Source: Apostichopus japonicus
Taxonomy: Eukaryota; Echinodermata; Holothuroidea; Aspidochirotida; Stichopodidae
Length of the DNA stretch: 64,000 bases
Direction: 5' to 3'
NCBI RefSeq assembly: GCF_037975245.1
Contig: NC_092563.1
Span: forward strand, 28,297,960-28,361,959
Positions 15,901 to 21,900 of this stretch are shown here, piece after piece. How positions within the stretch are numbered: position 1 is the first letter of the stretch; the number at the start of each line of letters is the position of its first letter. The position numbers and the translations under genes were made by a program. The notes under the pieces are model-generated. The model saw only the letters and a program-made list of their open reading frames with translations, had not been told where the DNA came from and ran no database searches.

Positions 15901-18900
15901 GTAACAAGGTTAAGCCATTTACAATTTTTTTTGTTTTGGCAACATCTCATAAATAAAATGCTCTTGAACAATGCTATGTTATAACTATTTCCACCATGCT
16001 TGCAATAATTTAATTTGTGTTTTTGTTCCTTGATACCTGAAATGTTGATATTTGGACAATATTCAAATCTATTTGACTATATTTTGGTGACACTTTATCT
16101 TTCAAAGTAAGAACTTTACATCATTTGGAAGAAAAATGGAAAAAGCACAGCTGAATAATGTGTATTTCTTTCCATAGAAAAATATCAGCTCTGCTTTAAA
16201 ATTTTCTAGATGATGTATTAGGTAGCTTTGAAATTCTGAGAATGCTAACTATGTGAGCCATTGGAGTGTTTGTCTGGCTTCCTATACCTCTTCTTATTCT
16301 TAGTTTTCCAAAACAAGGACTTTAAAACATTGTAAAAAATCGAAAAAAAAGAAAAGTACACACAAAAAATAGTAACAAAGAGAAAAATGATTTCTTTTCT
16401 GGTTACTTTCATCCAGTTGCCAAATCAAGTCAGGCTCCTGTGGTGTTGAAACTGACGTTGCAGAGCCTTGTGACTAACTGGTGTGTCAGCGTTGAACAGA
16501 TATTATCCATGCATCAAGGAATCAAGAGGCCAAACATCAAGATAACTCTGGGAAAAGCCACAAGAGATAACTCTGCTTGTCCAGATGATGCCTCTGCAGG
16601 TGAGACATGTTGGCTGTTGGTTTGTTCTAGTGATGCATTCATAGGTGAGTCATCACTGTTTGTTATAGTGATGCCTCCATAGGTGAGATAACTGTGTTCT
16701 AGTGATGCCTCCATTATTGAGACATCTGTTTCTTTGTTTTGATGATACCTCTATAGGTGAGACATCTCTGTTTGTCATAGTGATGCCTCCCTATGTGAGA
16801 TATCTCTGTTTGTTCTAGTGATATCTCCATAGATGAGATATCTCTGTTTGTTCCAGTGATGCCTCCATAGGTGATATATCCCTGTTTGTTCAGACAGTGT
16901 TCACATAGGTGCAATATCTGTTTGTTCTAATGATGCCTCAATAGATGGGATACCTGCTTGTTTGGAATATGCCTTCATAGGTGAGATATCTCAATAGTAG
17001 ATATATCTCTGTTGGTTTGTCCAAGTGATGCTGCCATAAGTTTGTTTGCTTGTTCCATTGATGCCCCCATAGATGATACATCTCTGTTTGTGAGACCTCA
17101 AGTTTGTGCAATGCCTTTAGAGGTAGGATACCTCTATTCTTTATTATGTCAGGAAACACCAAACATTTGGCAAGTTTTTATTATACAAAGGATTTTAAAC
17201 GCCATAAAAAACCTTACATTGGTGCAATTTTTAAATTTTTTCTTGCAGAGGAAAGTTCAGATCAAACCCTTCTGGCTACCTGGGAGTGGAGAGAAGGCCG
17301 TCTACTGACCTATGAGTTAATCGCCAAATACCTTGTCCATAATCACGTACATTACTTCTTCCCACCCCATGCTATACACCGTGCTAGGTTTAGAGGCTCC
17401 CAGTCAGTTGATGCAGCTATGCAGTCAAGGTAGGACTGAGATAATATACACCCCCTACTCCCCTCATTTACATGTCTCCTCAAAACAAAAGCACTCTCAG
17501 TGAATGTAATGATTTTGAAAATCTCAGAGATCAACTATGTTTGCTTTTAAGGTTAAAGTGAAAGAGGTTTATTTGATGCACACTTTGCTATTTTTTTATT
17601 GAGAAATCAGCTGAACTGGGATTGTTGGGTCTGGATGAGAATTTATTTCAAGCATTTTAAACCATAACTAAATAAACAGTGAGACGTTTCTTGACCTCTC
17701 CACAGATATTTGAAAAGTTCATCGGGAGAGAAGATTGGTTTATCAAAGAGCTTTGGGTACGCTACACACCGGCAAGCGTGGGCAACAAGCAGGGGTCAGG
17801 TAATTAATCTATCATTTGCATACCAAGCCCCATCCACAATGCAGTATGTTTGCATTCCCATCAACAATTCATCCATTAATTGTAGGACATATTGTAGAAT
17901 TATTATCACTGGCAACAAACAGGGGTCAAGTAATTAATCTATGATTTGCATACTAAGCCCCACCCACAATGCAGTATGTTTGCATTCCAGTCAACATTTC
18001 ATCCATTAATTGTAGGACATATTGTAGAATTACTATTACTGGCAACAAACAGGGGTCAAGTAATTAATCTATGATTTGCATACTAAGCCCCACCCACAAT
18101 GCAGTATGTTTGCATTCCAGTCAACATTTCATCCATTAATTGTAGGACATATTGTAGAATTACTATCACTGGCAACAAACAGGGGTCAAGTAATTAATCT
18201 ATGATTTGCATACTAAGCCCCACCCACAATGCAGTATGTTTGCATTCCAGTCAACATTTCATCCATTAATTGTAGGACATATTGTAGAATTACAATCACT
18301 GGCAGCAAACAGGGGTCAAGTAATTAATCTATGATTTGCATACTAAGCCCCACCCACAATGCAGTATGTTTGCATTCCAGTCAACATTTCATCCATTAAT
18401 TGTAGGACATATTGTAGAATTACAATCACTGGCAGCAAACAGGGGTCAAGTAATTAATCTATGATTTGCATACTAAGCCCCACCCACAATGCAGTATGTT
18501 TGCATTCCAGTCAACATTTCATCCATTAATTGTAGGACATATTGTAGAATTACAATCACTGGCAACAAACAGGGGTCAAGTAATTAATCTATGATTTGCA
18601 TACTAAGCCCCACCCACAATGCAGTATGTTTGCATTCCAGTCAACATTTCATCCATTAATTGTAGGACATATTGTAGAATTACAATCACTGGCAGCAAAC
18701 AGGGGTCAAGTAATTAATCTATGATTTGCATACCAAGCCACACCCACAATGCAGTATGTTTGCATTCCAGTCAACATTTCATCCATTAATTGTAGGACAT
18801 ATTGTAGAATTACAATCACTGGCAGCAAACAGGGGTCAAGTAATTAATCTATGATTTGCATACCAAGCCACACCCACAATGCAGTATGTTTGCATTCCAG

Positions 18901-21900
18901 TCAACATTTCATCCATTAATTGTAGGACATATTGTAGAATTACTATTACTGGCAACAAACAGGGGTCAAGTAATTAATCTATGATTTGCATACTAAGCCC
19001 CACCCACAATGCAGTATGTTTGCATTCCAGTCAACATTTCATCCATTAATTGTAGGACATATTGTAGAATTACAATCACTGGCAGCAAACAGGGGTCAAG
19101 TAATTAATCTATGATTTGCATACTAAGCCCCACCCACAATGCAGTATGTTTGCATTCCAGTCAACATTTCATCCATTAATTGTAGGACATATTGTAGAAT
19201 TACAATCACTGGCAGCAAACAGGGGTCAAGTAATTAATCTATGATTTGCATACTAAGCCCCACCCACAATGCAGTATGTTTGCATTCCAGTCAACATTTC
19301 ATCCATTAATTGTAGGACATATTGTAGAATTACAATCACTGGCAGCAAACAGGGGTCAAGTAATTAATCTATGATTTGCATACTAAGCCCCACCCACAAT
19401 GCAGTATGTTTGCATTCCAGTCAACATTTCATCCATTAATTGTAGGACATATTGTAGAATTACAATCACTGGCAGCAAACAGGGGTCAAGTAATTAATCT
19501 ATGATTTGCATACCAAGCCACACCCACAATGCAGTATGTTTGCATTCCAGTCAACATTTCATCCATTAATTGTAGGACATATTGTAGAATTACAATCACT
19601 GGCAGCAAACAGGGGTCAAGTAATTAATCTATGATTTGCATACCAAGCCACACCCACAATGCAGTATGTTTGCATTCCAGTCAACATTTCATCCATTAAT
19701 TGTAGGACATATTGTAGAATTACTATCACTGGCAACAGACAGGGGTAGGTCAAATTCTGAGTAAGGGTTGAGCATTGTAGCTGGGAGTCATGATGTAAAA
19801 ATTTGAAAGCTGTTTGTGATGACACGCAATAATGTATGCGGTATCAACACTTTCAAAATGCTATACAAAATTGGGAAATTGCTATACAAAGTGCAAAGGT
19901 GTATAATAGCTTTTTGTACACAGGAACTTAAGTACTTTGTAAAGGAACGTTCAGAGCCTGCAAACCTGCTGTACAAAATTAGATTACTAAACAATTCCCT
20001 GGATGAATACTGCCAGTTATTTCAAGCTGAGATCATGTCACGAACACATACACACGCACACACACACGCACATACATGTTTGTATTACATTCAGACCGAG
20101 GACCCTATTGTATTTGCCATTGTTCAAATCCATGTATCCTAACCTTAACAATACCCCATAACAATAGAATTCTTCTGAGGATGTGGTGATTCTTTAGAAA
20201 TCACATCGGAGGACCTGGAATTCTTTTGTTAAAGTCCTAGGTCAGAATACAAAACAAGTCAACACACACAAACACACAGTGTCAGCACCTTCGTGATTAG
20301 TTTTACAATGGTTCGCATTCTTGTCTTATTACGATGATTTATTTCAGTTTTGCATAAATTTTCTTTTCTCTCTCTCTCTCTCTCTCTTTGTTGCTACAGA
20401 GTGAAGAGGAATCTTCTGCTTCAACTACTCCCAATGAATCTCCGAGACATGAAATATCACCGACTCCAAACAATTCTGTAAGTCGAGATAAATGTCGGAA
20501 ATTTCAATACTAGATTTTTTTTCTTTTTCATAAGTTCCACAGGATTTGTAAGAATTTTGCAATGGTTGATATAATCAGGTCTATGAATGGCTTATACAAT
20601 ATCTAGTACTGATTCTGTTTTCTTGACATAACCATACTTCACAGTATAATCCTGTTATTTGTTTTGTAGATTGTAAGGGAGATTTGCGTTCAGATTGAGA
20701 TCCAAGTCTAGAAACATTCAGTCCTGAATTGGGTTTGAATTTTCAAAAGTCAACATAGGTCGTAGTTTTAAAGAGAGATCACATTGTGAAGCTTAAAATG
20801 CAGGGAATTATAAAGTGTTCAAACTTTGTGCAGCAGGTTTGAAGGATATGAATTTTTGCCTCTTATAAAATACTATGGTTCCTATGTACAAATTTTTTTA
20901 TTAATTTTTGCACTTATATACCAATTTGTTTATTTTGCATAGCATTTTTTTGGCTATGCAATACCGGCTAAATTTATTCACAGGGATAGTTATTGAAATC
21001 ATAACTTCAAGACTTTTTAATTGAGATGTTGTCAATCCATCAAATGCTGGGAATCCTGAACAGTTGTGGGTTTCTTTACCTTTTTTGCAGGAACTAACAA
21101 GAATGGGCAGTGATAGAAGAAAAAAGAATTTAGAGCAAAAGAGGTACGTCTGTAAAAGTGTCCTAAATTCAGATAAATTAATGAAAAAATTCAGATAAAT
21201 TAATGGAGATAAGCTTGAAACTGCGTGTATTGTTAAGTGTGTTAGTGAATCAGGAAATTGTTTTCCTTGAGAAAGAGAGCTATGTATTATGCCAGGTTAT
21301 TGACAAGTTTGAATTAAAAACTCAAATAAAGTAGATCCATTTCACTTACAGAAGCATTTTTTGTTTGTCTGGAAGCTAGCCGACGATTCCCATTCTCCTT
21401 ACCCTCCTTGTTTGGAAGGGTCAAGATGTCCCTGTAATCTACTATAGGCTCTACCCACACAAAATAGTGGAAAACTTACCCTAGCATGGACTACTTTCAC
21501 TTCCAAATGTGGACATTTTTCTATGTGATTTATTGAGGTGAGATGCATGATAGTATGCAGTCCATGAACTGAGTTGATACAATAATTTATAGTATGTAGT
21601 ATCTTCTCTAGCACATATAGGAGCTTGCATTTGGAATTTGCAAGTATGTTATAGAGGAATCATTCAATATATCTCAAATGTGAAGGAATAAAGACATGAA
21701 CAATCATCCTATGGATGGGCTAGGATTTGATTTGATATGATGAGTTAGTCCCTTATAATACTTGATGAGCTGGGCCCCTTTACATGCATGATGAGATATG
21801 AGATGGTCCCTTATGTATGATGAGATGGTCTCCTTATCATATGTGAAGAGATGATCCCTTTTCATTCATGATGTCATTTCTCAATGCTGCCATTTCCCTG

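What the first reader, a model, noticed from the sequence alone, without database searches (positions are those of the whole stretch)
17781..19746. A 130-bp satellite that begins inside an exon and copies its splice donor 15 times
Unit 1 starts 19 bases before the end of exon 10 of the large gene, so each later unit contains a copy of the exon end and donor. Intron 10 thus has one real donor followed by 15 near-copies at 130-base spacing. I do not know a described case of a satellite seeded on a coding exon border like this.
Basis: seen in the sequence. Interest (0 to 1): 0.75.

Follow-up and report, generated by a model that had tools for sequence, protein, structure and literature searches.

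The report
Intron minisatellite overlapping an exon end
In what looks like an echinoderm genome, a short DNA stretch covering the end of a predicted coding exon and its splice signal has been copied in tandem into the following intron; such arrays are already known from lancelets as 'mirages', and here they seem to arise because introns are full of tandem repeats.

Summary
The array is real: 17781-19746, 15 units of 130 bp plus a 16-bp tail. Unit 1 begins 19 bases before the end of a predicted coding exon (17706-17799). Corrections: there are 14 donor copies, not 15, and all 14 read CAA|GTAATT where the real site reads CAG|GTAATT, so all are weakened alike. A genome search reported the unit only here: a minisatellite, not a satellite.

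The kind is already described: tandem repeats spanning exon-intron borders ('mirages') in amphioxus, and similar repeats in human genes. A bindin exon marks this genome as echinoderm.

It is not alone here. A 38-bp array copies exon 8's end and donor in the same gene. Of 37 kinase loci with a donor candidate, L046 (31 bp x16), L062 (70 bp x12) and its paralogue L063 are clear, L052 doubtful. Yet donor borders of the gene carry arrays no more often (2 of 19) than its intronic positions (73 of 327); exon interiors rarely do (1 of 224). Best reading: intron minisatellites arise without regard to borders, and those overlapping an exon end survive because the exon-proximal copy stays intact.

The parts
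17706..17799 (+).
   Evidence: Acceptor PWM 5.82, donor 5.23 and U1 duplex -8.1 kcal/mol, frame kept over five predicted exons, 0 stops with it and 5 without it
17781..17910 (+). Unit 1 of the 130-bp array, spans the exon-intron border; outlier unit
   Evidence: Differs from all of units 2-15 at 8 columns, 9-11 differences in all
17911..19730 (+). Units 2-15, intronic, each with CAA|GTAATT (donor lacking -1 G)
   Evidence: unit table; one search scores 2.08 and -3.0 kcal/mol for 14 of 14
19731..19746 (+). 16-bp partial unit closing the array at the same phase as it starts; no GT at the donor position
   Evidence: borders
17249..17429 (+). Predicted preceding exon ('exon 9')
20400..20477 (+). 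Predicted following exon ('exon 11')
   Evidence: Acceptor 8.55, weak donor 1.31; open, phase 0-0
16417..16599 (+). Predicted exon 8; its end GATGATGCCTCTGCAG|GTGAGACAT is the first unit of a second array
   Evidence: End set by eye; the scans chose 16644 instead, one unit further on and also in frame. Border score 36 at 16599, 0 of 10000 shuffles, 0 of 1263 control 50-mers
16586..17091 (+). Second border-spanning array, about 38-bp unit, 13 local matches to the unit including the exon end, some partial and weak; more diverged than the first array; four donors inside it score 5.0-6.2
   Evidence: TRF 16620-16992, 72% matches; copies listed; donor scores

Best explanation
This is a 'mirage': a minisatellite whose first unit spans a coding exon-intron border. 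Shown: a 130-bp stretch (19 exonic + 111 intronic bases by my exon prediction) stands 15 times in a row; the first, exon-bearing unit is an outlier and units 2-15 are homogenised; no match to the unit was reported elsewhere in the genome. Inferred: the array grew from a local tandem duplication, perhaps between the two 16-bp similar stretches at its ends, followed by unequal exchange or slippage; it was tolerated because the exon-proximal donor was left intact while the founder of the intronic copies lost G at -1, so the copies are not used; the array is spliced out with the intron and has no function of its own. The overlap with the border needs no targeting, since introns here are full of minisatellites.
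For: Array and unit table. Copies weakened as donors: PWM 2.08 against 5.23, U1 pairing -3.0 against -8.1 kcal/mol. Use of any of the 14 copies puts a stop codon in the message. 15 of 15 reported genome matches in one array. Donor borders with arrays 2 of 19 against 73 of 327 intronic positions, Fisher p 0.39; exon interiors 1 of 224, p 2.7e-17. Same architecture in intron 8 and in kinase loci L046 and L062/L063. Kinase exon L047, 69 kb from L046 and 38 of 60 identical over the last 60 exon bases, ends at the same place with no border-crossing array, so in that pair the border does not depend on the array. Literature: amphioxus mirages of 10-160 bp, which seem not to disturb splicing, with boundary units excluded from homogenisation.
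Against: No RNA evidence and no homologue for the exon; one search preferred another frame of it. Donor scores rest on a weight matrix and a U1 5' end typed from recall; by matrix score two of 18 predicted donors of the gene are weaker than the copies. In intron 8, L046, L062 and L063 many copies are as strong, or nearly as strong, as the real donor, so loss of G at -1 cannot be the general reason why copies are tolerated. One strong intron-8 copy (16644) would stay in frame, so a copy may be the used site there. The counts 2 of 19 and 73 of 327 are not independent, because a few arrays supply most positions.
Confidence: 0.7

Rival explanations
1. Targeted seeding: exon-donor borders are hot spots at which tandem arrays start (for example through transcription-linked DNA damage or template switching), and this array is one product.
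For: Two introns of one gene and two unrelated kinase genes show it; no tested acceptor border does, 0 of 18 in the gene, p 0.017 against intronic positions, and 0 of 14 kinase exons with an acceptor candidate.
Against: Donor borders are not enriched over introns: 2 of 19 against 73 of 327, and 3 (or 4 with L052) of 37 kinase loci against 29 of 424 positions of 20 kinase stretches, p 0.39 and 0.73 (0.32). The acceptor deficit rests on autocorrelated positions.
Confidence: 0.1
2. Functional array: each unit acts as a decoy donor or as a 69-nt cassette exon (acceptor TTCCAG|TC to donor CAA|GTAATT, open, phase 0-0) that adds a variable number of 23-residue repeats.
For: 13 of 13 possible cassettes are open, and inserting one keeps the frame.
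Against: The best acceptor+donor score is reached by 46 of 1000 shuffles and by 29 of 473 other 130-mers of the window; the acceptor scores 0.48, the 17 predicted internal exons 3.88 or more, though those were picked partly by that score; the three variable sites inside the cassette all change the amino acid (translations).
Confidence: 0.07
3. Reverse order: the array came first and the end of the exon with its donor was taken from it (exonisation), or the exon is no real exon.
For: Polarity at this locus cannot be read without a relative; unit 1 is only an outlier, as edge units often are; the exon has no homologue and another open frame.
Against: No match to the unit reported elsewhere in the genome; the exon keeps the frame of its neighbours, 0 stops with it and 5 without it; in kinase loci L046 and L047 the same exon border exists with and without the array.
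Confidence: 0.1
4. Assembly error: copy number or the junction with the exon is wrong.
For: The authors of PMC3087553 say that amphioxus mirage BflGb6 appears aberrantly assembled in the draft genome.
Against: At 1966 bp the array is short, the units carry distinguishing variants, and the genome is 672 Mb in 35 contigs. Data type unknown.
Confidence: 0.03

Closest known systems
Amphioxus 'mirages' (Adh3, globins BflGb6 and BflGb9, PGBD5, TnC)
   Same: Tandem repeats that span an exon-intron border, units 10-160 bp, many carrying splice signals; in BflGb6 inner units homogenised and boundary units excluded.
   Different: This genome looks echinoderm, not cephalochordate. 15 units here against 6 and 3 in the two BflGb6 haplotypes. 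Loss of -1 G in all copies is not mentioned in the parts I read. Splicing could not be checked here.
Human internal tandem repeats at exon-intron boundaries (PMC2812944)
   Same: Minisatellites located at exon-intron boundaries (abstract and passages).
   Different: There they are reported with RNA support to give alternative splicing and new introns, in recent segmental duplications; average unit 30 bp, 4 copies.
Intron gain by tandem duplication of AGGT sites (Rogers model)
   Same: Tandem copies of a splice-site-bearing stretch.
   Different: No new intron is inferred here; the array lies inside one intron. Model taken from the section of PMC3087553 and search listings.

Membership tests
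Mirage (tandem repeat spanning an exon-intron border) | Repeat unit spans a coding exon-intron border | tested here: met
   unit 1 covers -19 to +111 of donor 17799. The exon itself is predicted, not seen in RNA
Mirage (tandem repeat spanning an exon-intron border) | Minisatellite-size unit, 10-160 bp in published cases | tested here: met
   130 bp; 38, 31 and 70 bp in the other examples
Mirage (tandem repeat spanning an exon-intron border) | Copies carry AG/GT splice signals (many, not all) | tested here: met
   GT in 14 of 14 copies but AG before it in 0 of 14; AG|GT kept in at least four copies of intron 8
Mirage (tandem repeat spanning an exon-intron border) | Border unit excluded from homogenisation | tested here: met
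   8 private columns in unit 1, 5 variable columns in units 2-15
Mirage (tandem repeat spanning an exon-intron border) | Normal splicing in spite of the copies | not testable with these tools
   No RNA data
Mirage (tandem repeat spanning an exon-intron border) | Copy-number instability between or within individuals | not testable with these tools
   One assembled sequence only
Satellite DNA | Very large arrays or many loci in the genome | tested here: not met
   15 of 15 reported matches in one 2-kb array (the tool gives lower bounds)
Cassette exon array | Splice sites as good as those of real exons | tested here: not met
   Acceptor 0.48 against 3.88 or more for 17 predicted internal exons; 46 of 1000 shuffles as good

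The most novel reading that the evidence does not exclude
Exon-border arrays are common in this echinoderm genome (some percent of donors), with up to about 15 donor copies in a row, in some genes mostly of equal strength to the real one. They would be a natural series of experiments on how the spliceosome picks the exon-proximal donor, and a standing source of new exon ends and introns outside cephalochordates.
Probability: 0.35. Interest if true: 0.65.

Novelty: new member of a known kind. Interest (0 to 1): 0.4.

Why it matters
It moves 'mirages' from lancelets to several genes of what looks like an echinoderm, and suggests that they follow simply from dense intron minisatellites. Cases with many equal donors (L046, L062, L063) allow a direct test of donor choice by RNA sequencing.

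Tried and rejected
The protein pieces were joined by hand and not all their junctions were checked for frame.

Amphioxus as source: considered because of the mirage literature. The GFP family gave no match, but it rang in none of the 14 control genomes either, so that alone shows nothing. The bindin exon speaks for an echinoderm; that bindin is found only in echinoderms is recalled, the motif LGLLLRHLRHH being identical in urchins and sea stars is from a passage of PMC4063459. No eukaryote control was searched.

Higher-order structure (units 4-9 like 10-15): not significant, 693 of 5000 permutations as low. Inverted repeats within 400 bases in 17200-20500: none. Exact unit pieces in viral contigs (26 bases) and genome contigs (18 bases): 0 matches each. 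Paper searches: (0 papers) gave listings. L052 (GA-rich, low complexity) was flagged but I do not count it as clear. Donor 23492 has an intronic repeat (+7 to +25) that does not cross the border. The gene's retrocopies or paralogues could not be searched: the machine was unreachable each time.

Rows dropped: of 134 kinase matches I chose by eye 80 partial-domain ones; sequences for 40 of these were obtained, one (three stop codons) was left out; 37 of 40 had a donor candidate, up to four candidates each, 48 borders in all. Some of the 40 are exons of one gene or overlap. One search tested 22 exons (13 with donor, 14 with acceptor candidate), two of them, L012 and L016, only there; the other loci L011-L040 were not tested as such. 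Acceptors of the second 20 kinase loci were not tested. The kinase background (29 of 424) comes from L041-L060 only, one contig orientation, with slightly different shuffle numbers (300 against 500) and a score floor of 30. L009 was fetched and not used.

Papers: PMC3087553 passages (abstract among them) and section 16 whole; PMC3902484, PMC2812944 and PMC4063459 passages only; all others search listings only. Canestro et al. 2002 is not held (by its PMC id; one search tried a DOI from memory that is not the paper's); what I say of Adh3 and TnC comes from PMC3087553 and PMC3902484.
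Full report
Observation. Tandem Repeats Finder gives 17781-19746, period 130, 15.1 copies, 98% matches. A 26-base core of the unit, up to 3 mismatches, occurs 15 times in the window and never in 100 shuffles. Cut into units, the array is 15 full units plus 16 bases. Unit 1 starts 19 bases before position 17799, where a predicted coding exon (17706-17799) ends in CAG|GTAATT. The exon is supported by its acceptor, its donor and by frame: predicted exons 17249-17429, 17706-17799, 20400-20477, 21091-21143 and 23315-23492 join with 0 stops, and without 17706-17799 there are 5. It has no transcript and no homologue, a second frame of it is open and scored better in one scan, and the gene matched no Pfam family over its cut-off and no PDB chain convincingly.

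Corrections. The donor position is copied in units 2-15, that is 14 times; in the tail the GT is lost. Unit 1 differs from all other units at 8 columns, among them column 19, the last exon base: G in unit 1, A in 14 of 14 copies. Units 2-15 vary at only 5 columns. The change lowers the donor score from 5.23 to 2.08 and pairing with U1 from -8.1 to -3.0 kcal/mol; the 18 predicted donors scored in that call pair at -5.3 to -11.9 (matrix and U1 end from recall). By matrix score the copies are not below every predicted donor: two of the 18 score lower. Splicing at any of the 14 copies would put a stop into the message.

Genome context. The window lies at C3:28297960-28361959 of a 671.6-Mb genome in 35 contigs; the unit has 15 reported matches, all in this array (counts are lower bounds by the tool's own statement). 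It is therefore best called a one-locus minisatellite. A bindin exon (E 5.2e-29 in the genome, 3.6e-31 in Pfam, motif LGLLLRHLRHH) places the genome among echinoderms; the motif is said to be identical in sea urchins and sea stars (PMC4063459, passage); that bindin is confined to echinoderms is recalled.

Other cases. A test of 19 predicted donor borders, 18 acceptor borders and the start of the first exon for copies that cross the border found two, both donors: 17799 and 16599. Exon 8 ends GATGATGCCTCTGCAG|GTGAGACAT and the 38-bp array behind it repeats this end and donor; its border score is reached by 0 of 10000 shuffles and 0 of 1263 control 50-mers. Four donors inside that array score 5.0-6.2 against 6.75 for 16599. 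One of them, 16644, is what my scans took as the exon end, and it too is in frame; so which of the two is used is open, and 16599 was set by eye.

Among 40 kinase loci of the same genome, 37 had a donor candidate and 4 were flagged. L046 is an MLCK/twitchin-like kinase exon that aligns to its last residue with solved kinases, followed by 15.9 copies of 31 bp; 12 of 15 listed donor copies score the same as the first. L062 and its paralogue L063 carry 70 bp x12 and x11, where most of the unit is exonic if the exon ends at the first AAG|GTGAGC; the last 9 bases before it lie outside the kinase match; 8 of 11 and 10 of 10 listed donor copies score the same as the first. L052 is GA-rich and doubtful. 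L047, 69 kb from L046 on the same contig, has the same exon border without a border-crossing array, though other repeats lie in its intron.

Is the border special? By one test, 73 of 327 intronic positions of the gene, 82 of 314 intronic GT positions, 58 of 583 non-exon positions of the window and 29 of 424 positions in 20 kinase stretches lie in such repeats, against 2 of 19 donor borders, 0 of 18 acceptor borders (upstream test; 75 of 327 intronic positions) and 1 of 224 exon-interior positions. Donors are not enriched (p 0.39; kinases 3 or 4 of 37, p 0.73 or 0.32); exon interiors are strongly depleted; the acceptor deficit (p 0.017) is a lead only, because neighbouring positions are not independent. 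So minisatellites are dense in introns, coding sequence is protected, and an exon end is overlapped about as often as intron.

Mechanism. Shown: the structure, the outlier status of unit 1, the lost G in all copies, no reported match elsewhere. Inferred: a local duplication, possibly between the two 16-bp similar stretches that open and close the array, then unequal exchange or slippage; tolerance because the exon-proximal copy stays intact. In this array the founder of the copies lacks the donor's last exon base; in intron 8, L046, L062 and L063 equal or nearly equal donors persist, so position next to the exon must matter too, or copies are used there. A cassette-exon reading (69 nt, open in 13 of 13) is weak: the score is matched by 46 of 1000 shuffles and 29 of 473 other 130-mers.

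What is known. In amphioxus such structures are called mirages: Adh3 10-72 bp, BflGb6 150-160 bp, BflGb9 157 bp; they seem not to interfere with splicing, and in BflGb6 cluster boundaries are excluded from homogenisation (PMC3087553, section 16 read); PGBD5 and TnC are added in PMC3902484 (passage). In human genes tandem repeats at exon-intron boundaries can make new introns (PMC2812944, passages). My searches that could have shown such arrays in echinoderms listed none that I recognised from title and abstract; one search listed 10 of 27 papers, most of which I did not open, and most subscription journals are not held. The finding is a new member of a known kind, apparently in a new phylum.

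Noticed in passing
16586-17091: Second exon-border array in the same gene (38 bp, 13 local matches), more diverged, with four strong donor copies, one of them in frame.
   Followed up: yes
L046:3354-3854: 31-bp x16 array at a kinase exon end, most donor copies as strong as the first.
   Followed up: yes
L062, L063: 70-bp x12 and x11 array, mostly exonic sequence, in two paralogous CDK-like (name recalled) loci on contig C11.
   Followed up: partly
7286-7678: Two 52-bp arrays that look like reverse complements of each other, meeting at 7464-7472.
   Followed up: no
5602-6216: Open frame with a YqaJ recombinase domain (Pfam E 1.2e-7).
   Followed up: no
42218-42445: Protein kinase exon on the - strand (C3:28340177-28340404).
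   Followed up: no
predicted acceptor borders of the gene: No acceptor border carries an array (0 of 18) though intronic positions often do (75 of 327).
   Followed up: partly
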